Assembly (NCBI GenBank): GCA_027490195.1
Contig: JAIXYN010000021.1
Span: forward strand, 124,001-188,000
Direction: 5' to 3'
Source: Verrucomicrobiaceae bacterium
GTDB lineage: Bacteria > Verrucomicrobiota > Verrucomicrobiia > Verrucomicrobiales > Verrucomicrobiaceae
DNA: 64,000 nucleotides
Part shown: positions 26,415-34,850 of the stretch, piece after piece
How positions within the stretch are numbered: the first letter of the stretch is position 1
Layout of the letters: every line of letters begins with the position of its first letter
Position numbers and translations under genes: made by a program
Notes under the pieces: model-generated
What the model saw: only the letters and a program-made list of their open reading frames with translations
Told to the model about the DNA's origin: nothing
Databases searched by the model: none

Positions 26415-28007
26415 TCACTGCATCAACTGATCCCAACTCAGTTTGAAGCGTGCCAGGTACTTCTTGAGCCTGTCCGCATCATTCATCTTCGAGCGCTTGG
26501 TCCGCGAGACAGCGAACAGCTTGCGCCCGGCATCAGAAAGCGTTTTGCTTTCCCGGCACACCTGCAAAACAAAGTCCAGCTGCGCCAGGTCAAAGGGATC
26601 AATATCATCCCTCTGCACCTTGGTTAGTATGGCGTTCTCCCGGCTTGATGCCTGACCAACATCCCGCCAGCCTTCAAGCAATCGCGCAGCCTCCGTCTCC
26701 ACACATTCCACGGTGATCCTGCCCCTGGGGGCCAGCGTGGCCATGCGTGTCACCGCCGCATTCAGATCGCGGAAATTGGCACTCCATTTCGCCTCAGGAC
26801 TGCGGGCAAATTTGAGGAAGGCTTCGCGTGCTTCTTTGTTCATCCGCACTTGCCGTCGATTCGACTTCGCAAAGCGTTCCAACTCGAAGTCGAGATTCGC
26901 AGCGATGTCTTCACGGCGCTCGGCGAGACTTGGCAGTGTGAAGGTCCACAGGTTGATGCGTGCGAGCAAATCATCGCGAAACTTGCCAGCCGCGACCTGC
27001 GTGCGCAGATCACGATTCGTGCCCGCAATGAGTTGGAAATCGCTCTGCACCGCTTTGTCGCCACCCAGCGGCAGGAAGGTCTTGTCCTCAAGCGCCCGCA
27101 GCAGCATCGCTTGCTCGTCGAGACCGAGTTCGCCGATCTCATCCAGAAAGATCAGCCCCTTGTCCGCCTCTTTGAGCAGTCCTGCCCTATCCGACTGCGC
27201 ACCCGTGAAAGAGCCGCGTTTATGCCCAAAGAGCGCCGACATCGCGTGATCACCGCGCAGTGTAGCACAATTCACCTCCACAAATCTGCCGCCCAGACCG
27301 GCGCGCGAACGCCGCAGATCGTAGATGCGGCTGGCCAGCATGGATTTGCCAGCACCCGTGGGTCCCATAATGAGGATGGGAGCTTTGGAGTTCACGGCCA
27401 CGAGCTCAATCTGTTCAATGAGCTTGTTGAAGCCCTTGCTCTTGGTAGCGATGCCACTCTTCAGAAAGTCCAGCGTGCGCTCCTGTTCCTGCGCAAAGCG
27501 CGTGGAAAGACGGTCATACTTCGAGAGATCAAGATCAATGATCTCATAGCGCCCCGATGGCTTCGCATCACGTCCGCCCTCACGCGACGGCGAAGTTTGC
27601 AGCAGCCGAGCCGGAATGAAGTTCGCCTCGTTCAGCAGAAACCAGCAGATCTGCGCCACATGCGTCCCTGTCGTGAGGTGGATCAGGTAGTCCGCCTTCT
27701 CCGGGTCGAAAGTGTACCCACGCACAAAGTCATAGAGCCGCTCATACACCTCCTGCAAATCCCACGGGTCTTTCAGTGGAAACTCATGCACCACCACCGT
27801 TGTCTCAGGCGACACCTTCTCAATGTCCGCCTTCACCTGCTGTGCCAGATCCACGAACTTCGGTTCCGCCAGCAATTCCAGCCGCGAAATCACCAAGTCT
27901 TCCTGCTGGCACATCGCCACCGTGGGCCGCCATTTTGACCATCTTTCTGGCCCTGAGGCACGGTCCAGGTTTGATCCGAGGAATCCAAAAGTGATGACGG
28001 GTTTCAT
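26415..28007 (-). CDS. rtcR: RtcR, sigma-54-dependent activator of the RNA repair operon (CARF sensor)
   Basis: This 530-residue protein has an N-terminal RtcR/CARF domain (about 1-180; FGFLGSNLD start, HLTTGTHVAQ). The central AAA+ domain has Walker A GPTGAGKS, Walker B LIFLDEIGE and the sigma-54 contact loop in the form GSFTGA. A C-terminal DNA-binding region ends the protein. In E. coli RtcR is held inactive by its CARF domain until RNA damage ligands bind. The operon it should control begins with a clear -24/-12 promoter at 29026 and encodes the Ro60, RtcB and RtcA proteins. It is preceded by a kinase-like gene on the same strand, 15 bases away. Confidence 0.95.
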   Translation of the reverse strand: MKPVITFGFLGSNLDRASGPERWSKWRPTVAMCQQEDLVISRLELLAEPKFVDLAQQVKADIEKVSPETTVVVHEFPLKDPWDLQEVYERLYDFVRGYTFDPEKADYLIHLTTGTHVAQICWFLLNEANFIPARLLQTSPSREGGRDAKPSGRYEIIDLDLSKYDRLSTRFAQEQERTLDFLKSGIATKSKGFNKLIEQIELVAVNSKAPILIMGPTGAGKSMLASRIYDLRRSRAGLGGRFVEVNCATLRGDHAMSALFGHKRGSFTGAQSDRAGLLKEADKGLIFLDEIGELGLDEQAMLLRALEDKTFLPLGGDKAVQSDFQLIAGTNRDLRTQVAAGKFRDDLLARINLWTFTLPSLAERREDIAANLDFELERFAKSNRRQVRMNKEAREAFLKFARSPEAKWSANFRDLNAAVTRMATLAPRGRITVECVETEAARLLEGWRDVGQASSRENAILTKVQRDDIDPFDLAQLDFVLQVCRESKTLSDAGRKLFAVSRTKRSKMNDADRLKKYLARFKLSWDQLMQ

Positions 28008-28022: not shown

Positions 28023-28811
28023 TTAAAGCGCGGCTCGAATGGCTCGCAGCAACGCGCCCGTTGGGCGTAAAGGATTCACGTCAATGGGGCGGAGAGAACC
28101 ATTCCACTCCAGGAGGTTCGCGGGCTTGGCATCAAACACCGCCGTGTTGTCCGCATCCCGATACCACGCATGCGAAGGTCCAGGCTGATTGCTCAGATAC
28201 AGCTTCGCAAAGCCTCGCCGCGTGAACCATCCTTCAATCAGCCGCCGCACCTCATGACCGCCCACCTCTATGGCGATGTCTCCCAGCAATCGTCCCGGCA
28301 CATAATCCTGCAATGTTACCACCTCTAGCCTGAGCGGTGTGCGGATGAATCCCTCCAAAGTCATGGCCACATCGGGAAATACTTCATTCAGCAGCACCAG
28401 GCGGCGCAGATATTCGCCCAAGCTTGCCGCTCCTAGTTTCAGCCCGCCTTCAACGATTGGTGTGTAGCCGTAGCCCGCACCTATGATTTCATCCGTCGGC
28501 TTCGTGACTCGGCGAACATGCGACACAGGGTCACCAATGCGTGCCACATCATGCTCCGTGCCTCCGAGCAACAGCTCGTCTAAATTCGCGATCTCCATCC
28601 AGAGGCCGTGAATTTCGATCCATGGTTCGATCAGTTTTTGCTCCGCAGTCTGTCGATCACCGAGGGCATCGAGTGTCCTAAGTTCCGCTGCATCTGTTCT
28701 AGTGCTTGAGCTGAGGAGTGCTGCGGCATCCGCAAGACCCCCGCCGCAGCCTTGTCTTGGCTGCGTTGCGTGGGTTTCTCTTGGGCCGGAACTGGGGACT
28801 GCATCACTCAT
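28023..28811 (-). CDS. Kinase-like protein of the polyvalent-protein type, unknown role
   Basis: This 262-residue protein, from about residue 78 onward, reads like the atypical Ser/Thr/Tyr kinase domains first noted in polyvalent phage/plasmid proteins. It has a glycine-rich LLGGTEHDV (81-89), a lysine in VTKP (104), LGEYLRRLVLLNEVFPD (131-147), VTLQDYVPG and a catalytic-loop-like DAKPANLL (227-234). A DFG-like PIDV (242-245) follows. The first 45 residues (GPRETHATQPRQGCGGG) look low-quality and may not be coding. It lies directly upstream of rtcR on the same strand and divergent from the Ro60 operon, so it is likely co-expressed with the regulator. Function is inferred only. Confidence 0.6.
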   Translation of the reverse strand: MSDAVPSSGPRETHATQPRQGCGGGLADAAALLSSSTRTDAAELRTLDALGDRQTAEQKLIEPWIEIHGLWMEIANLDELLLGGTEHDVARIGDPVSHVRRVTKPTDEIIGAGYGYTPIVEGGLKLGAASLGEYLRRLVLLNEVFPDVAMTLEGFIRTPLRLEVVTLQDYVPGRLLGDIAIEVGGHEVRRLIEGWFTRRGFAKLYLSNQPGPSHAWYRDADNTAVFDAKPANLLEWNGSLRPIDVNPLRPTGALLRAIRAAL

Positions 28812-28914: not shown

Positions 28915-29025
28915 AACTGCGGAATAAAAAACGCCGCTTTTTGCTCGAAAAAATAATCTTAAAATTCCTGCAAGCCTTGTTTTACAACACTTACAGCGTC
29001 CTTCGGACACCTGGCTCAGAGCACT

Positions 29026-29041
29026 TGGCACGCCCCTAGCA
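29026..29041 (+). promoter_or_regulatory. Sigma-54 (-24/-12) promoter of the Ro60-Y RNA-rtcBA operon
   Basis: TGGCAC, a five-base spacer (GCCCC) and TAGCA match the sigma-54 consensus TGGCAC-N5-TTGCW with one mismatch and exact spacing. Transcription would start near 29052, about 30 bases before the TROVE-gene ATG. The divergent rtcR gene encodes the expected AAA+ activator. Confidence 0.85.
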
Positions 29042-29083: not shown

Positions 29084-30652
29084 ATGGCTAGCAAATCACT
29101 CTTTTCGACCCTCCGCGGCGCTCTGACTCCAAAGGCTGACAGCTTCAATGAAGCCGGTGGCCTGGCCTATCAGTTCACGCCTCGCCATGCGCTGGCTCAG
29201 TATGCGGCCACCGGCTGCTTGAACAGCACCTATTACGCTTCGGCGGAAGATCAGCTTCAGCAGGCCCTGAAGCTGTGTGAGAAAGTTCCGACGGACTTCA
29301 TCGCCCGCACGGCGCTTCACTGCCGCCAGAAAGGTTTCATGAAGGATGTGCCAGCACTGCTCTGCGCCGTGCTTGCCGCCCGTGATGCCGAACGTCTGGA
29401 ACTGATCTTCGATCGCGTGATCGACGACGCCAAGATGCTGCGGAACTTCGTGCAGATCCTGCGCTCTGGCGTGACGGGTCGTAAATCCCTCGGCTCTCTG
29501 CCAAAGCGCCTCGTGCGCCGCTGGTTCGAGACCCGTTCGGACGAGGCCATCTTTCGCGCAGACGTGGGTCAGTCACCTTCGCTGGCGGACATCGTGAAAA
29601 TGGTGCACCCACGTCCGGCGAACAAGATCCGCGAGGCCCTGTATGGCTACCTCATTGGTCGCAAGCATGATGCCTCGGCGCTGCCACGCATCGTGCGTGA
29701 GTTCGAGGCCTGGAAAGCCGACCCTGCGGGAGATCCGCCGGACGTGCCGTTCCAGATGCTCACCGCGTTGCCTTTGACGGCAGAGCAGTGGCAGGCCATC
29801 GCTCGTCGTGCCCCATGGCAGATGACGCGCATGAACCTGAACACCTTTGCCCGTCACGGCGTGTTCTCCATCAAGGAGATCACCCGTCTCGTGGCCAGCC
29901 GGCTGCGCCATGAGGAGCAGGTGCGCCGCTCCAAGGTGTTCCCGTATCAGCTCCTGGCCGCCTATCTCAACGTCGGCGCGGAAGTCCCGCACGAGGTAAA
30001 GGAAGCGCTGCAGGATGCGATGGAGATCTCGGTCTCCAACGTGCCGGTGGTGGCTGGAAAGGTGGTCGTGGCTCCAGACGTGTCCGGGTCCATGCACTCC
30101 GCTGTGACCGGTGTCCGCAAGGGGGCCACCAGCAAGGTGCGCTGCATCGACGCGGCCGCCCTAGTGGCCGCTGCCTTCCTGCGTCAGAACCGTGATGCCG
30201 AAGTGCTGCCATTCGAGAACAACGTCGTTCGTGTGAAACTGAATCCCCGTGATTCCGTGATGACGAACGCGCAGAAGCTCGCATCTCTGCCTTGCGGCGG
30301 AACGAATTGCAGCGCCGTGCTCATCGATCTCAATGCCCGCAAGGTGCAGGCGGATCTGGTCATCTACGTCTCCGACAACGAGTCGTGGATGGATACTCCT
30401 TATCACGGCCACTTTGGCGGTTCTGCCACCCGCACCATGAGCGAGTGGCAGAAGTTCAAGCAGCGCAATCCGAAAGCCCGTCTCGTGTGCCTGGACATCC
30501 AGCCATACGCAACCACGCAGGCACAGGAGCGCGAGGACATCCTCAACATCGGCGGCTTCTCGGATGCCGTGTTCAACGTGATCGCCGCCTTTGCCCGTGG
30601 CGAACTCAGCAGCGCCCACTGGGTCGGCGAAATCGAGAAAACCCCACTTTAA
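29084..30652 (+). CDS. rsr: Ro60-like TROVE domain and vWA protein (Rsr)
   Basis: This 522-residue RNA-binding protein has a HEAT-repeat TROVE ring (about 10-320) and a C-terminal vWA domain whose MIDAS motif is DVSGSM (D332, S334, S336), with the later GGTNC and SDNES elements. Ro60 orthologues bind Y RNAs on the outer surface of the ring and can thread misfolded RNA through the hole. In some bacteria they pair with PNPase or with Rtc ligases. Here it is the first gene behind a sigma-54 promoter and is followed directly by four Y-RNA-like units, its predicted ligands. Confidence 0.95.
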   Translation: MASKSLFSTLRGALTPKADSFNEAGGLAYQFTPRHALAQYAATGCLNSTYYASAEDQLQQALKLCEKVPTDFIARTALHCRQKGFMKDVPALLCAVLAARDAERLELIFDRVIDDAKMLRNFVQILRSGVTGRKSLGSLPKRLVRRWFETRSDEAIFRADVGQSPSLADIVKMVHPRPANKIREALYGYLIGRKHDASALPRIVREFEAWKADPAGDPPDVPFQMLTALPLTAEQWQAIARRAPWQMTRMNLNTFARHGVFSIKEITRLVASRLRHEEQVRRSKVFPYQLLAAYLNVGAEVPHEVKEALQDAMEISVSNVPVVAGKVVVAPDVSGSMHSAVTGVRKGATSKVRCIDAAALVAAAFLRQNRDAEVLPFENNVVRVKLNPRDSVMTNAQKLASLPCGGTNCSAVLIDLNARKVQADLVIYVSDNESWMDTPYHGHFGGSATRTMSEWQKFKQRNPKARLVCLDIQPYATTQAQEREDILNIGGFSDAVFNVIAAFARGELSSAHWVGEIEKTPL

Positions 30653-30665
30653 TAACTCAAACTTT

Positions 30666-30736
30666 GGAGCCTGGTGAATGCCGGAGCGGACTACATTTAC
30701 ACGGTTACGTCTCTCCGATTCTTGTCACCAGGCTCC
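30666..30736 (+). ncRNA. Y-RNA-like RNA 1 (short form, no tRNA-like module)
   Basis: A perfect 12-bp terminal stem (GGAGCCTGGTGA with TCACCAGGCTCC) closes a 47-base loop that starts with ATGCCGGAG and contains ACTACAT. The base of the stem reads GGTGA-ATGCC on the 5' side and CTTGTCACC on the 3' side, and the same pair of strands recurs in the next three units. These resemble the conserved Ro-binding helix of Y RNAs (GGUCCGA with CUUGACC in human Y RNAs). An inner CGGAG/CTCCG helix is possible. It lacks T and D arms, unlike units 2 and 4. Confidence 0.8.
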
Positions 30737-30755
30737 ATCCCAACTCTTTTCAAAA

Positions 30756-30888
30756 GATGGCGAATGCCCCGAGGAACTACATTGAACCAGTCGGCCGCAG
30801 GTTCGAGCCCTGCCTGTCATGCACCAGCATGGCAGTAGCTCAGCCGGTAGAGCAATTGGCACACGTTTCTCACCTCCTTGTCGCCGTC
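30756..30888 (+). ncRNA. Y-RNA-like RNA 2 with circularly permuted tRNA-like module
   Basis: An 8-bp terminal stem pairs GATGGCGA with TCGCCGTC (one G-U pair). Inside, in order, are a T arm with perfect stem GCAGG/CCTGC and loop TTCGAGC (30797-30813), an acceptor-like hairpin CTGTCATG/CATGGCAG with loop CACCAG (30814-30835), TA, and a D arm GCTC/GAGC with loop AGCCGGTA (30838-30853). This is a tRNA elbow with the 3' half before the 5' half and no anticodon arm, since the Y stem takes its place. The same permuted arrangement is known for YrlA-type bacterial Y RNAs. A T-run follows at 30892. Confidence 0.85.
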
Positions 30889-30916
30889 ACCTTTTTTCAA
30901 TCTTAACACCCACTTT

Positions 30917-31006
30917 TGGCGAATGCCGGAGCGGACTACATCGTAACCAGCGGGTTCAAATCCCGCCCCGCAGCAATGCGGAGAAGTCTCTCCACCCTTG
31001 TCGCCA
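30917..31006 (+). ncRNA. Y-RNA-like RNA 3 with T arm but no recognisable D arm
   Basis: Terminal stem TGGCGA/TCGCCA encloses the shared GAATGCC...ACTACAT element. It also holds a perfect T arm GCGGG/CCCGC with loop TTCAAAT (30950-30966) and a short hairpin CCGCA/TGCGG closed by a GCAA tetraloop (30968-30981). The sequence after it (GAAGTCTCTCC) has no D-arm pattern, so this unit is a reduced form. It ends with the shared CTTGTCGCC. Confidence 0.78.
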
Positions 31007-31046
31007 TCTCTTCTTTTCAGCCAGTCAGCGCTGTTCCCATTTTCCC

Positions 31047-31197
31047 AAAATGGTGACGAATGCCCGATGGAACTACATGCATCAAGACGCCTCATGCCGT
31101 GGGTTCGAGTCCCACCGGTCCCACCTTACGGGACCGTAGCTCAGTGGTAGAGCGGAGAAAAAACGTTTCATCAAACCCTTGTCGTCACCGCCATTTT
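31047..31197 (+). ncRNA. Y-RNA-like RNA 4 with circularly permuted tRNA-like module
   Basis: The terminal stem GGTGACGA/TCGTCACC (31052-31059 with 31182-31189) is perfect and can be extended by AAAATGG/CCATTTT in an alternative pairing. Inside are a T arm GTGGG/CCCAC with loop TTCGAGT (31099-31115), an acceptor-like 7-bp hairpin CGGTCCC/GGGACCG with loop ACCTTAC (31116-31136), TA, and a D arm GCTC/GAGC with loop AGTGGTA (31139-31153). It is the best tRNA mimic of the four. The start codon of the next gene lies nine bases downstream of the extended stem. Confidence 0.86.
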
Positions 31198-31205
31198 CTA
31201 CCTCA

Positions 31206-31898
31206 ATGCTTTCCAAAACCGATATTGAATTCGCTCTCTCAATCCAAAGCCGTTGCTTCAAGCTTTTGCAGTGGCTCGGGAATGCCATCCGTGAGGGATT
31301 CGTTCCCGTCATGAAGGCTCATGATGTGACGGATGCCGGCCACGCCGCTAAGGCCTGGGTGGAAACACACTTCTACAATCTTCCGAATGAGTGCCGCCCG
31401 CTCTCCGATGAAATGGTGCCGTTCGCAAACTTCTTTGGCACCTATCTCGAAACATCTTTCGATATCATCGCCAACCCAAAAGACCGCTATGTCAGCGATT
31501 GCGACTGCTTCTGCTCGTATTGCGTGCGTATGGTTCGTGCGCAGCACTTGAAGCCCAAATCCCTCACTCGTGAAGACAAAGAGCGTGCTGCCAAGCTGCG
31601 AGTGCGTCGCATGGAGATGCTGGCTCGTGAGGAAGGACTTCCATCCTTCGAACTACGAATAAAAGAAAGCCTCAACGATGAGTCTTTGCGTCATCAAGCC
31701 TCGCTCTCCGCTTACGGAGATGCATTGCTTGACCGCCTCAAGGGCATCTCCGATGGCCCTGCTGTTCTTGCTCTCTGGCGCGATTTTGCCTGGACTCGCG
31801 AGGGTGCTCCAAATCGAAAGTTCAAGCTCCAGGTACGACAAATTTTGGAAGCCGAACAAGAGCTTCTCAGTGTCCTTCAAAATCACGCCGCTCAATAA
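31206..31898 (+). CDS. Unknown protein with a CxCxCxxC cluster, between Y RNAs and rtcB
   Basis: This 230-residue cytoplasmic protein has no family I recognise. Four cysteines (C99, C101, C103, C106 in DCDCFCSYC) could bind a metal. The C-terminal half is strongly helical and basic (LRVRRMEMLAREEG). ATG 31206 was chosen because the upstream TTG lies inside the Y RNA 4 stem. Its place between the RNA ligands and the ligase gene suggests a role in RNA repair or Y RNA handling, but that rests on position alone. Confidence 0.8.
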   Translation: MLSKTDIEFALSIQSRCFKLLQWLGNAIREGFVPVMKAHDVTDAGHAAKAWVETHFYNLPNECRPLSDEMVPFANFFGTYLETSFDIIANPKDRYVSDCDCFCSYCVRMVRAQHLKPKSLTREDKERAAKLRVRRMEMLAREEGLPSFELRIKESLNDESLRHQASLSAYGDALLDRLKGISDGPAVLALWRDFAWTREGAPNRKFKLQVRQILEAEQELLSVLQNHAAQ

Positions 31899-31933
31899 TC
31901 CAAATCAAATTCCCCCATTTCATTTTGCCAACC

Positions 31934-33421
31934 ATGACCTCCCCATTCCACATCACCGCCGAAGCCGAAGCCATCCTGCCTGCCCGCAACAACGCGGGTA
32001 AACCGATCACCGTGATCGGTACGGAGGCGATTCGTTCTGGCTTTGATCAAACCTGCATCGATCAGGCTCTCAACTCGCGCTCCGCTCCAGGCGTGACGGA
32101 TCTAGTCCTCAATCCCGACGCGCACGCTGGTTACGGTGCGCCGGTCGGTTGCGTGATGGTTTCGCCAACGCACATCTATCCGGGCCCCGTGGGCGTGGAC
32201 ATCAAGTGCTCCATGTCCCTGCTGCAGATGAACATTCCTGCCGATGCGATCGTGGACAAAGCGATCCGCCGTCAGCTCATCGACGCCATCTTGCTGCGTA
32301 CCCCCACCGGTGCAGGCCGTGGTCAGCGCGAGGCGAAAAAATCGCGCCGCGTGTCCGAGGCTCTCGGTGTGCAGGTGTGCACCGAAGGCGCCAGCAAAAG
32401 CGTGTGCGAAGCACTCGGCATCCCGCCGGAGTGGGCGCTGCGCTGCGAGGACAGCACGCACCTCGGCCACGATGGAAACGTCTCCACCCTGCACGAGCGC
32501 CTGGACAAAATGCGCTCCTTCAATGGCTTCGCCGGTTTCGAAAACAAGATGATGCAGCTCGGCTCCTACGGAGGTGGAAACCACTTCGGTGAGTGCGAGG
32601 TCGTGCAGCTTGCCGATGATCCAGCAATGCGTCAGACCGCTGAGGTCTTCGGCTTGCAGGACAATCACGTCGCCTTCCTCAGCCATTGCGGATCCCGCGG
32701 GTTCGGCAACATCCTGGCTCAGCGTCAGTTCAAGGCCCTGGAAGGCTTCTTCCGCACCTGGGGTCTGTCGTTCCCTGCCGATGACAAACAGCTCGTCTAT
32801 GCACCGCTCGGTACTCCCGAAGCGGACGCGTATCTCGATGACATGGCTCTCGGGGCGAATTTCGCCACCGTGAACCACATGCTCATCAATGCGCTCGTGC
32901 TGGAAGCCTTTCAAGAAGTGCTGCCGGGTACCAAAGGTCAGCTCGTGTACTTCATCAGCCACAACATCGCCCGCCAGGAAGTGGTCGATAACCAGCTCGC
33001 CTGGGTCCACCGCAAAGGCGCCACGCGCGCCTTCCCCGGTGGCCACCACGCCCTCAAAGACACGCCTTTCGCCAGCACCGGTCACCCCATCCTGCTGCCG
33101 GGAAATCCGCGCGATGGCTCCGTGGTGATGGTGGCGAAACCCGATGCCGTGAAAAGCTGCTACAGCGTGAACCACGGAGCCGGCCGCTGCATGGGCCGCA
33201 AGGCAGCTGCTCGCACGCTCGATCAAAAAAGCGTCGACGCCGACTTCGAAACCCACGACATCCTTTACAACGCCCGCCAGTACCCGATCGACGAAGCCCC
33301 CAACGCCTACAAGGATTTCAAAGAAGTCCTCCACAGCGTCGAAGCCGCCGGTCTGGCCCAGCAGGTCTGCAAACTCAAAGCCCGCTTCGTCATCAAAGAC
33401 GCCGCGGAGGCGGATGATTGA
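31934..33421 (+). CDS. rtcB: RNA-splicing ligase RtcB (3'-phosphate/5'-OH ligase)
   Basis: This 495-residue protein is close to the longer archaeal form rather than the roughly 408-residue E. coli form. Metal and guanylylation elements are visible: GPVGVDIKC (D89, C92), GSYGGGNHFGE, SHCGSRG and VNHGAGR, whose histidine is guanylylated in the family. RtcB uses GTP and Mn2+ to join 2',3'-cyclic phosphate or 3'-phosphate ends to 5'-OH ends and can repair cleaved tRNA or rRNA. ATG 31934 is preferred to the TTG nine bases upstream. It lies in the sigma-54 operon downstream of the Ro60 and Y RNA genes. Confidence 0.97.
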   Translation: MTSPFHITAEAEAILPARNNAGKPITVIGTEAIRSGFDQTCIDQALNSRSAPGVTDLVLNPDAHAGYGAPVGCVMVSPTHIYPGPVGVDIKCSMSLLQMNIPADAIVDKAIRRQLIDAILLRTPTGAGRGQREAKKSRRVSEALGVQVCTEGASKSVCEALGIPPEWALRCEDSTHLGHDGNVSTLHERLDKMRSFNGFAGFENKMMQLGSYGGGNHFGECEVVQLADDPAMRQTAEVFGLQDNHVAFLSHCGSRGFGNILAQRQFKALEGFFRTWGLSFPADDKQLVYAPLGTPEADAYLDDMALGANFATVNHMLINALVLEAFQEVLPGTKGQLVYFISHNIARQEVVDNQLAWVHRKGATRAFPGGHHALKDTPFASTGHPILLPGNPRDGSVVMVAKPDAVKSCYSVNHGAGRCMGRKAAARTLDQKSVDADFETHDILYNARQYPIDEAPNAYKDFKEVLHSVEAAGLAQQVCKLKARFVIKDAAEADD

Positions 33422-33765: not shown

Positions 33766-33824
33766 ATCAAAACACGATTTTTCTCTTTCCCCTCTGACGC
33801 CGCATGGCGGTCCCTCACTCATAC

Positions 33825-34850
33825 ATGAAATCCACCCCCATCCTCCAAATCTCCGGCGAATCCGGCGGCGGCCAACTCCTGCGCTCCTCTCTCTCTTTGT
33901 CGCTCGTCACCGGGCGTCCATTTCGGATGACGAAAATCCGCGGCAAGCGCCCAAAGCCAGGGCTGATGCGCCAGCATCTCACCTGCGTGAAAGCCGCTGC
34001 AGAAGTCTGCGAAGCGAGCGTCGATGGCGCTGAACTTGGCTCGGTAGAACTCGTCTTCCACCCCGGGAAAGTCGTGGGTGGAGACTACTCCTTTGCCATC
34101 GGCTCCGGCGGCAGCACCACCCTCGTTTTGCAGACCCTGCTGCCAGCGCTGCTGCATGCGGAAGGTTCGAGCACGCTGCGCATTGAAGGTGGGACACACA
34201 ACCCTATGGCTCCCCCGTTTGAGTTTATCGAGCAATGCTATCTGCCGGTGATCCATACCATGGGCGTGAAGGCCACCGCTAAGCTGGAGCGTCATGGCTT
34301 CATGCAGGCAGGTGGCGGCGTTATCACGGCAGAAATCAATCCCATCAAAAAATGGAAGAAGCTCAAGCTCATCGACCGCGGAGATCCCGTGGAAACCTTT
34401 GGCCGCGTCCTCCATGCGCATCTCCATCGCGACATTGCCGAGCGTGAAATCTCGACGGCCTGCGCTCTCCTCGCCTGGCCAGACAACGCCATTGAACTTC
34501 GCTACGCCAATGACAGCCCCGGCCCCGGCAATACCATTCTCCTTGGCGCACGCTTTGACAACGTGTGCGAGATCAGCAGTGGCATCGCGCAGCAGGGCAA
34601 ATCGTCTGAAGCCGTGGCGACTGGCGCGGCAAAGGGGCTGCGTTCATATCTCGCTTCATCCGCACCCGTGGGAGTGCATCTCGCGGATCAGTTGCTTCTT
34701 CCCATGGCGCTGGCAGGCGGCGGTGTGTTTCACACGCTGGCCATCAGCGACCACACTCGGACAAACATGGCGCTGATCGAGCAGTTCCTGCCGGTGAAAT
34801 TCACAGTCGAAGAACTGGAGCCAGGCGTGAAGCAAATCCGCTGCAGCTGA
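33825..34850 (+). CDS. rtcA: RNA 3'-terminal phosphate cyclase
   Basis: This 341-residue protein has the RtcA hallmarks: GESGGGQLLRSSL near the N-terminus, FAIGSGGSTTLVLQTLLPAL, GGTHNPMAPPFEF, and the H-x-x-D-Q motif in GVHLADQLLLPMAL that carries the adenylylated histidine. It converts RNA 3'-phosphate ends to 2',3'-cyclic phosphates using ATP, producing a substrate for RtcB. ATG 33825 was chosen to match family N-termini. It closes the Ro60-Y RNA-rtcBA operon. Confidence 0.96.
   Translation: MKSTPILQISGESGGGQLLRSSLSLSLVTGRPFRMTKIRGKRPKPGLMRQHLTCVKAAAEVCEASVDGAELGSVELVFHPGKVVGGDYSFAIGSGGSTTLVLQTLLPALLHAEGSSTLRIEGGTHNPMAPPFEFIEQCYLPVIHTMGVKATAKLERHGFMQAGGGVITAEINPIKKWKKLKLIDRGDPVETFGRVLHAHLHRDIAEREISTACALLAWPDNAIELRYANDSPGPGNTILLGARFDNVCEISSGIAQQGKSSEAVATGAAKGLRSYLASSAPVGVHLADQLLLPMALAGGGVFHTLAISDHTRTNMALIEQFLPVKFTVEELEPGVKQIRCS

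What the first reader, a model, noticed from the sequence alone, without database searches (positions are those of the whole stretch)
30666..31197. Four tandem Y-RNA-like units sharing a 5' GAATGCC...ACTACAT and a 3' CTTGTC-R-CC strand
All four have the same paired strands at the base of a terminal stem (GAATGCC within a GG-rich helix; CTTGTCACC or CTTGTCGCC at the 3' side), each followed by a short pyrimidine tract. They differ in what fills the loop: nothing, T and D arms, T arm only, T and D arms. This suggests one Ro-binding handle with interchangeable effector modules.
Basis: seen in the sequence. Interest (0 to 1): 0.8.

Follow-up and report, generated by a model that had tools for sequence, protein, structure and literature searches.

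The report
Four-unit Ro60-binding Y RNA array
Between a bacterial Ro60 gene and an RNA-ligase gene lie four small RNA units that share one likely protein-grip stem but carry different heads (none, a tRNA look-alike, half of one, another look-alike); this grip-plus-head design recurs in many bacteria and some phages, with tRNA-like heads attached in several different ways.

Summary
Window 30666-31191 has four tandem units with one two-helix handle (GAATGC / ACTACA / CTTGTC) and payloads none, T+D, T-only, T+D. They lie between rsr (Ro60) and rtcB in an RtcR-type RNA-repair operon, so they are bacterial Y RNAs of the YrlA kind, which is known. Units 2-4 match RF02553 below its cut-off; unit 1 matches no Rfam family. 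"Handle plus exchangeable module" is supported by comparison: in 145 rsr loci a motif-plus-stem scan finds 309 sense and 3 antisense units; helices not used for selection covary; 51 of 65 well-flanked loci hold three or more units. Two things go beyond the finding. The tRNA-like payload is attached in several circular permutations: the classic YrlA order, nine D-loop grafts, three units with the handle in place of the acceptor stem, and rarer orders. And the same genome has a second rsr with its own array on a different handle carrying similar payloads. No expression or binding data exist here; partners are inferred from published YrlA/RYPER work. Chen 2014, Wang 2018, Sim 2018/2020 and Burroughs 2016 could not be read, so priority is unsettled.

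The parts
30666..30736 (+). Y unit 1, handle only (no T or D arm); 13-bp perfect basal inverted repeat 30665-30677/30725-30737
   Evidence: no RF02553 match; member of the covarying set A2 and so matched by model R1
30757..30890 (+). Y unit 2, handle + T arm (30797-30813) + 9-bp acceptor-like hairpin (30814-30835) + D arm (30837-30853)
   Evidence: RF02553 48.0 bits, cut-off 69
30916..31010 (+). Y unit 3, handle + T arm (30950-30966) + 5-bp hairpin (30968-30981), no D arm
   Evidence: RF02553 29.7 bits; same reduced payload in orthologous units of relatives
31053..31191 (+). Y unit 4, handle + T arm (31099-31115) + 7-bp acceptor-like hairpin (31116-31136) + D arm (31138-31153)
   Evidence: RF02553 57.1 bits, cut-off 69
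29084..30652 (+). rsr, Ro60 orthologue (Pfam vWA_Ro60, TROVE)
   Evidence: NCBIfam Rsr model 87.8 bits, far under its cut-off of 900
31934..33421 (+). rtcB RNA ligase (start chosen by me; mechanical ORF 31925-33421)
33804..34850 (+). rtcA RNA 3'-phosphate cyclase
26415..28007 (-). rtcR, sigma-54 activator with RtcR domain
29025..29041 (+). sigma-54-like site TTGGCACG-N4-TAGCA, 42 bases before rsr; one mismatch to a recalled consensus, not significant by count

Best explanation
The four units are tandem bacterial Y RNAs encoded with the Ro60 orthologue Rsr inside an RtcR-type RNA-repair operon. Each has the same putative Rsr-binding handle: a basal helix, an asymmetric internal loop (AAUGC on the 5' side, a CUUG-containing strand on the 3' side), and a second helix closed by ACUACA...GU(C/U). 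In place of the terminal loop sits a payload: none in unit 1, a permuted tRNA elbow (T arm, closed acceptor-like stem, D arm) in units 2 and 4, a T arm plus hairpin in unit 3. Proposed working: damaged RNA switches on the operon through RtcR, Rsr is made together with its Y RNAs, and each Rsr ring takes one RNA by the handle. tRNA-elbow RNAs tether or compete for proteins that recognise tRNA (PNPase in the published RYPER machine; tRNA-maturation enzymes). The bare handle occupies Rsr without a tether and so acts as a gate or idle form. Shown here: anatomy, covariation, operon context, tandem conservation, module exchange. From published work on relatives: RtcR induction by tRNA fragments, Rsr-YrlA-PNPase assembly, modification of YrlA by tRNA enzymes. 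Inferred: that these RNAs are expressed, bind this Rsr, and divide labour by payload.
For: Operon order rtcR(-) / rsr / units / rtcB / rtcA. Of 45 related loci with 5 kb on both sides, tblastn finds rtcB in 44, rtcR in 37, rtcA in 31. Sense 309 vs antisense 3 units in 145 loci; motif-only selection 334 vs 2 in 148 sources. Covariation with shuffle and slide controls, also on unselected helices alone. R1 matches only on rsr contigs in 14 handles. The order m-TD-T-TD is kept in six close relatives. Acceptor-like stem of 7-8 bp in 89 of 142 T+D units. Published: rsr-yrlBA-rtcBA operon and its activation by tRNA fragments (PMC7790460, PMC9879122; passages); YrlA stem binds Rsr, tRNA-like domain binds PNPase, D and pseudouridine modification (PMC8394870, passages).
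Against: No RNA or binding data. Units 2-4 score below the RF02553 cut-off and unit 1 matches nothing. RF02553 also gives sub-cut-off matches in 7 of 14 control genomes, so those scores alone prove little. Single-sequence folds of units 2 and 4 do not show the T/D arms. My finder required the basal helix, and the T+D class required a T stem and a D motif, so their conservation is partly selected. In the handle-only set, 78 of 500 shuffles reach the observed number of pairs with two-sided change and 9 of 500 the number of pair types (helix 2 alone 149 and 261 of 500); cells paired and covariation are reached by none. With motif-only selection a register slid by -3 also pairs fairly well (3.50 vs 4.23 of 5). 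8 of 45 R1-positive Acidobacteria-class genomes had no rsr hit.
Confidence: 0.83

Rival explanations
1. The four units are functionally equivalent extra copies: tandem duplication raises Y RNA dose, and the loss of arms in units 1 and 3 is decay, not specialisation.
For: Units 1 and 3 share 24 of 25 bases in the 5' handle strand, as expected of duplication. In three relatives of unit 3 the T loop is damaged (TGC for TTC).
Against: Orthologous units keep their own payload type in the same order in close relatives. Handle-only units occur far beyond the genus, are the first downstream unit in 33 of 60 well-flanked loci that have one, and covary.
Confidence: 0.1
2. The tRNA-like units are decoys that soak up tRNA-attacking nucleases or carry tRNA-modifying enzymes, rather than tethers for an exonuclease.
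For: Position in an RNA-repair operon. Several D-loop grafts have a short cap in place of the anticodon loop and a closed acceptor end, leaving mainly the elbow. PMC7790460 itself raises competitive inhibition of the anticodon nuclease as a possibility (passage).
Against: In about a third of T+D units a 7-nt anticodon-like loop is kept (50 of 141, shuffle 9.5). In Salmonella no YrlA fragments were seen under conditions that cut tRNAs (PMC7790460, passage), which neither proves nor excludes binding.
Confidence: 0.25
3. Unit 1 is only the transcription terminator of rsr, and units 2-4 are degenerate tRNA genes.
For: Unit 1 has a strong 13-bp stem and is followed by CTCTTTTC; units 2 and 4 hold tRNA-like arms.
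Against: ARAGORN finds no tRNA; arms are in permuted order. Handle-only units in distant loci share the internal motifs and covary in helix 2, and they are not all next to rsr.
Confidence: 0.02

Closest known systems
YrlA (Rfam RF02553, Y RNA-like), as in Salmonella rsr-yrlBA-rtcBA
   Same: Same handle and fold in the Rfam alignment, same T - acceptor hairpin - D order in units 2 and 4, same operon neighbours (PMC7790460 passages).
   Different: Four heterogeneous units instead of two; unit 1 bare, unit 3 without D arm; all scores under the cut-off. In relatives other permutations and non-tRNA payloads on the same handle.
Salmonella YrlB
   Same: A second Y RNA beside YrlA in the same operon (PMC9879122, passage).
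   Different: Its sequence was not seen here, so whether it equals the bare unit 1 is unknown.
Deinococcus radiodurans Y RNA (RF01053) and RYPER
   Same: Rsr partner RNA that tethers PNPase (PMC7790460 and PMC8058203, passages).
   Different: Not among the matches of the window array; only a sub-threshold fragment at the second array (20.6 bits, E 0.8).
Animal Y RNAs
   Same: Lower stem with bulges bound by Ro60 (PMC4726728, passage).
   Different: Described there as not homologous with the bacterial RNAs.
Permuted tmRNA (RF04321)
   Same: Permuted tRNA-like core; weak match to unit 4 (22.1 bits, E 0.024).
   Different: Far under cut-off (47 bits).

Membership tests
YrlA, RF02553 | Score at or above Rfam's gathering score (69 bits) | tested here: not met
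   57.1, 48.0, 29.7 bits for units 4, 2, 3; none for unit 1. So not filed as formal RF02553 members.
YrlA, RF02553 | Rsr-type handle of two helices with conserved internal-loop bases | tested here: met
   All four units (units 2-4); covariation in relatives
YrlA, RF02553 | tRNA-like domain (T arm, acceptor-like stem, D arm) | tested here: inconclusive
   Met by units 2 and 4, half met by unit 3, not met by unit 1
bacterial Y RNA | Encoded beside an rsr/Ro60 gene | tested here: met
   rsr 29084-30652; PDB match to 'Ro sixty-related protein, RSR' 2nvo, E 4.3e-24
bacterial Y RNA | Bound by Rsr in the cell | not testable with these tools
   No binding data
bacterial Y RNA | Made as discrete small RNA | not testable with these tools
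   No transcriptome at hand
RtcR-controlled RNA-repair operon (rsr-yrl-rtcBA) | rtcR, rsr, Y RNA, rtcB, rtcA together | tested here: met
RtcR-controlled RNA-repair operon (rsr-yrl-rtcBA) | sigma-54 promoter before rsr | tested here: inconclusive
   One-mismatch site at 29025-29041; the window holds no more such sites than shuffles (8 vs 9.3)
Deinococcus Y RNA, RF01053 | Rfam match | tested here: not met
   Not among the matches up to E 10 for window 30500-31300
tRNA / tmRNA | ARAGORN gene or Rfam match over cut-off | tested here: not met

The most novel reading that the evidence does not exclude
Ro60 in these bacteria is the hub of an adaptor system. A short RNA handle, in at least two orthogonal versions each tied to its own Rsr paralogue, displays exchangeable payloads. 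The chief payload is a tRNA elbow offered in at least four circular permutations of the cloverleaf (handle between D stem and anticodon arm, in the D loop, in place of or beside the acceptor stem, between T arm and acceptor), usually with a closed acceptor end. Other payloads are bare handles and non-tRNA hairpins. One Ro ring could thus be equipped with different partners during RNA-damage responses, and some phages carry their own sets.
Probability: 0.4. Interest if true: 0.85.

Novelty: new variant of a known kind. Interest (0 to 1): 0.62.

Why it matters
Why cells keep several Y RNAs per Ro60 is, as far as I know, open. These arrays offer natural sets in which one handle carries no head, half a head or a full tRNA-like head in one operon, so the role of each head can be tested by deletion and pull-down. 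Several attachment points of the handle on a tRNA-like core suggest that the elbow, rather than the acceptor end or anticodon, is what is being shown, which would narrow the list of partners. A second rsr with its own handle in the same genome allows tests of specificity.

Tried and rejected
Origin of payloads as recent copies of particular host tRNAs: in 50 T+D units with an anticodon-like loop, the isotype of the loop agreed with the best-matching tRNA body in 2 (chance 1.5); top three 8 (chance 4.8, permutation P 0.085). Not supported; the reference was 32 distinct tRNAs from G000 only.

A 3'-CCA in the acceptor loop: 15 of 139 loops begin N?CCA. Not general; window unit 2 happens to have ACCA.

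Automatic detection of D-loop grafts: my first script returned 0 because of a faulty pattern. I then used a simpler pattern, eye and model R2. R2 gives matches at E<=0.001 in 133 of 158 genomes, many short and tRNA-like; I counted no match under 80 bits as a D-loop graft. Above 80 bits nine genomes are listed: six are training units, one (G189) was read and is clear, one (G103) was read and is degenerate, one (G136) was not resolved.

Class labels are by regular expression and rough: many units labelled T above 100 nt do have a D arm that the pattern missed. Handle-only units with diverged motifs were missed in L045 and L028 (seen by eye). Counts of units are thus incomplete; some single matches in viral loci may be chance. 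Left out before counts: units containing another unit's start (5 marked '?'; such units), identical repeats, rows above 88% alike (A2) or 80% alike and outside 105-132 nt (A4).

Selection: the finder required the basal helix; the T+D class required a T stem of at least 4 of 5 pairs, a T-loop-like sequence and a D motif, so the 140 of 142 TTCRA loops are favoured by construction. I therefore repeated the counts on helices not used in selection. For handle 2 the basal stem was also required, and no shuffle control was run on its helix 2.

Literature: Chen 2014 (RNA), Wang 2018 (Structure), Sim and Wolin 2018, Sim 2020 and Burroughs and Aravind 2016 are known to me only by recall or citation; look-ups for four of them failed and Wang 2018 was not looked up. 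I recall that the Chen 2014 abstract says at least one Y RNA in each species has a tRNA-like domain, so mixed sets are probably already in print. Searches made for prior description; in the listings (titles, abstract beginnings) I saw no paper on permuted attachment or on two handles, but only open-licence papers are searched. Passages only were read in PMC7790460, PMC8394870, PMC9879122, PMC12282133, PMC4726728, PMC7824862, PMC8058203.

Full report
CHECK OF THE OBSERVATION. The composite 5' strand GAATGCC-N4..10-RACTACAT is found at 30676, 30762, 30921 and 31058 and nowhere else in the window, with none in 100 shuffles. Each has its CTTGTC partner, and the flanks pair; unit 1's basal stem is a 13-bp perfect inverted repeat. 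RF02553 (YrlA) aligns to units 4, 2 and 3 with 57.1, 48.0 and 29.7 bits, all under its cut-off of 69, and not to unit 1; the same family also gives sub-cut-off matches in 7 of 14 control genomes. ARAGORN finds nothing. Single-sequence folds give the handle in all four, z -5.7 to -2.6, but not the T and D arms of units 2 and 4.

SURROUNDINGS. The array lies between rsr and rtcB, with rtcA downstream and rtcR divergent upstream. This is the layout of the Salmonella rsr-yrlBA-rtcBA operon (PMC7790460, PMC9879122; passages), in which the activator RtcR is triggered by tRNA fragments with a cyclic phosphate. A one-mismatch sigma-54-like site ends 42 bases before rsr, not significant by count. The window is G000:C43:124001-188000; the nearest rsr genes in named records are from Verrucomicrobia, among them Brevifollis gellanilyticus (89%) and a Prosthecobacter MAG (93%).

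RELATIVES. An alignment of eight Rsr proteins brought 80 loci from genome contigs (488 relatives found, best 80 kept) and 65 from viral contigs. A motif-plus-basal-stem scan found 309 sense and 3 antisense units in these 145 loci; 26 of the 65 viral loci hold at least one, some of them near-identical contigs or doubtful single matches. Because that scan asks for the stem, I repeated it by motifs alone on the 145 loci plus window, L022 and L023: 334 distinct 5' sites sense, 2 antisense; taking the nearest 3' motif blindly (309 sites), 4.23 of 5 outer bases pair at the true register, 1.40-2.28 at seven of the eight slid registers and 3.50 at -3, where GGC-like repeats pair again. Of 65 cellular loci with 1.5 kb on both sides, units per locus were 0:2, 1:2, 2:10, 3:20, 4:21, 5:5, 6:3, 7:1, 8:1; 41 have a handle-only unit, 61 a T+D unit, 39 both.

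COVARIATION. 70 handle-only units (A2): RNAalifold gives two helices, 14 pairs, 12 with changes on both sides; cells paired 91.5%, covariation 0.690 against 0.210 shuffled and at most 0.151 slid; none of 500 shuffles reach these two, but 78 of 500 reach the 12 pairs and 9 of 500 the number of pair types. Helix 2 alone, which my finder did not ask for: 87.8% paired, 0.599 against 0.212 shuffled and at most 0.158 slid (0 of 500), while its pair counts are reached by 149 and 261 of 500. 55 diverse T+D units including window units 2 and 4 (A4): RNAalifold alone gives basal helix, helix 2, T, acceptor and D stems; 26 of 31 pairs with two-sided changes, 0.603 against 0.191 shuffled and at most 0.139 slid. 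Basal helix, T stem and D motif were part of the selection; helix 2 and acceptor stem alone give 93.1% paired, 13 of 14 pairs with two-sided changes (2 of 500 shuffles), 0.752 against 0.229 shuffled and at most 0.223 slid.

GENOME-WIDE. A model of the handle-only units (R1), searched over 14 genome handles (G044 repeats G004) that were chosen because they have rsr, gave 40 matches, all on the contig with rsr by coordinates; some are training units. Over 158 genomes of an Acidobacteria class, 45 match R1; 37 of these are among the 39 genomes with an rsr hit, 8 are not, and the other two rsr genomes (G105, G171) either did not match or were not drawn.

PAYLOADS. In six close relatives (L038-L041, L043, L044) the order is handle-only, T+D, T-only, T+D, as in the window; L042 has one more unit; L045 has the same last three and a diverged first unit seen by eye; L028 has a diverged first unit by eye and then a different order. 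In T+D units the acceptor-like stem has 7-8 bp in 89 of 142; the T loop is TTCRA in 140 of 142, which the class definition favours. In 50 of 141 the stretch before the T arm is a small hairpin of 2-4 bp with a 7-nt anticodon-loop signature, against 9.5 in letter shuffles, so there the handle seems to sit between D stem and anticodon arm. Units 2 and 4 of the window lack it. T-only units up to 100 nt tend to have GG(T/C) within eight bases after the handle: 16 of 23, against 23 of 142 T+D and 6 of 95 handle-only units; this may replace the D-loop GG that docks on the T loop. The window's unit 3 lacks it, and in L038, L040 and L044 its absence goes with a damaged T loop.

OTHER PERMUTATIONS. In eight units (L052:3617, L067:6428, L077:8920, L082:9991, L084:10128, L090:4880, L184:3370, L189 reverse 2280) the order is D-loop GG and D 3' strand, anticodon-like hairpin, T arm, acceptor hairpin, D 5' strand: the handle is inserted in the D loop. 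They align (A3) and covary (20 of 34 pairs with two-sided changes; 0.476 against 0.205 shuffled, at most 0.098 slid; the D stem is invariant and part of the selection). Without basal helix, D and T stems the figures are 92.4% paired, 13 of 18 pairs, 0.516 against 0.243 shuffled and at most 0.099 slid. Model R2 then found a ninth clear case, G189, 105 bits; of two further new hits at 82-83 bits one (G103) is degenerate when read and one (G136) was not resolved. Three units (L086:9912, L090:7907, L110:13387) read D-like, anticodon-like, T, with the handle in place of the acceptor; one (L241:1845) reads acceptor, D, anticodon-like, T. Some units carry non-tRNA payloads, including one recurring in Acidobacteria. 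The last three groups are small and rest on reading and folding.

A SECOND HANDLE. G000 has a second rsr (about 30% identical; C83:171101-172525, minus strand) with at least five units on its 5' side built on another handle, GGCAGTGA...TACTTCG...TTTCTCC. Nine rsr2 loci hold 31 distinct such units sense, 0 antisense; the basal stem (required by the search) varies with pairing kept, and the best contiguous helix 2 has 7 or more pairs in 26 of 31, register not fixed and no shuffle control. Such handles also stand beside rsr2 in two genomes of another family, partly read by eye. Handle 2 is absent from the 80 rsr1 loci; handle 1 shows 0 sense and 1 antisense match in the nine rsr2 loci, and one doubtful 297-nt match in L240. 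Payloads on handle 2 include T-only, classic T-acceptor-D (RF02553 38.2 bits), and D-anticodon-T-acceptor order (L035:6322; L240). That locus in G000 encodes an RNA ligase (PF09414), Rsr2, RlaP, a second RtcB and an HNH protein; the nine fetched loci contain 5-16 ARAGORN tRNAs each, of which at least three (L032:4137, L035:6339, L035:7760) are Y units miscalled.

MECHANISM AND STATUS. Rsr-binding stem plus tRNA-like domain, with PNPase binding and tRNA-type modification, is published for YrlA (PMC8394870 passages). I therefore place the window array as a new variant of a known kind. The steps shown are anatomy, covariation, context and module exchange; expression, binding and partner choice are inferred. 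Whether multi-permutation payloads or two handles are already described could not be settled, because the main papers are not held; searches made.

Noticed in passing
L029 (G000:C83:163001-183000), about 8.1-11.3 kb, minus strand: Second Ro60 gene in the same genome with its own Y-like array on a different handle, in a second RNA-repair locus (RNA ligase, RlaP, second RtcB, HNH).
   Followed up: partly
L029-L037 and L239, beside rsr2: Cluster of ARAGORN-called tRNA genes (5-16 in each of L029-L037; 11 in L239) next to the array; the eight in G000 near rsr2 score in the lower part of its 51 tRNA matches.
   Followed up: partly
L052:3617, L067:6428, L077:8920, L082:9991, L084:10128, L090:4880, L184:3370, L189, L242: Y units in which the handle is inserted in the D loop of a tRNA-like core, several with a short cap in place of the anticodon loop.
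   Followed up: yes
window 31206-31898 (+): 230-aa ORF between array and rtcB without Pfam or NCBIfam match; tblastn relatives in 5 of 80 loci, in all five lying within or just after the Y array.
   Followed up: partly
window 28023-28811 (-): 262-aa ORF between rtcR and rsr with a weak Kinase-PolyVal match; tblastn matches in only 3 of 80 loci.
   Followed up: no
L052:5379, L079:7851, L086:7827, L090:5447: Recurring non-tRNA payload on handle 1 in Acidobacteria, hairpins with a CCTAAGCTGTTCATGCGC-like end in several.
   Followed up: no
unit 3 orthologues L038:4601, L040:9832, L044:9830: Loss of the GG before the T arm goes together with T-loop TTC to TGC, as if a tertiary contact were lost; window and L041 lack the GG with TTC kept.
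   Followed up: partly
G071, G099, G101, G117, G177, G188, G189, G193: Handle-only model matches in genomes without an rsr hit: incomplete assemblies or orphan Y RNAs.
   Followed up: no
phage collection; viral loci L118-L182: 112 of 50,697 phage records hold an Rsr relative (all under 60% identity); 26 of 65 viral-contig rsr loci also hold a handle-1 match.
   Followed up: partly
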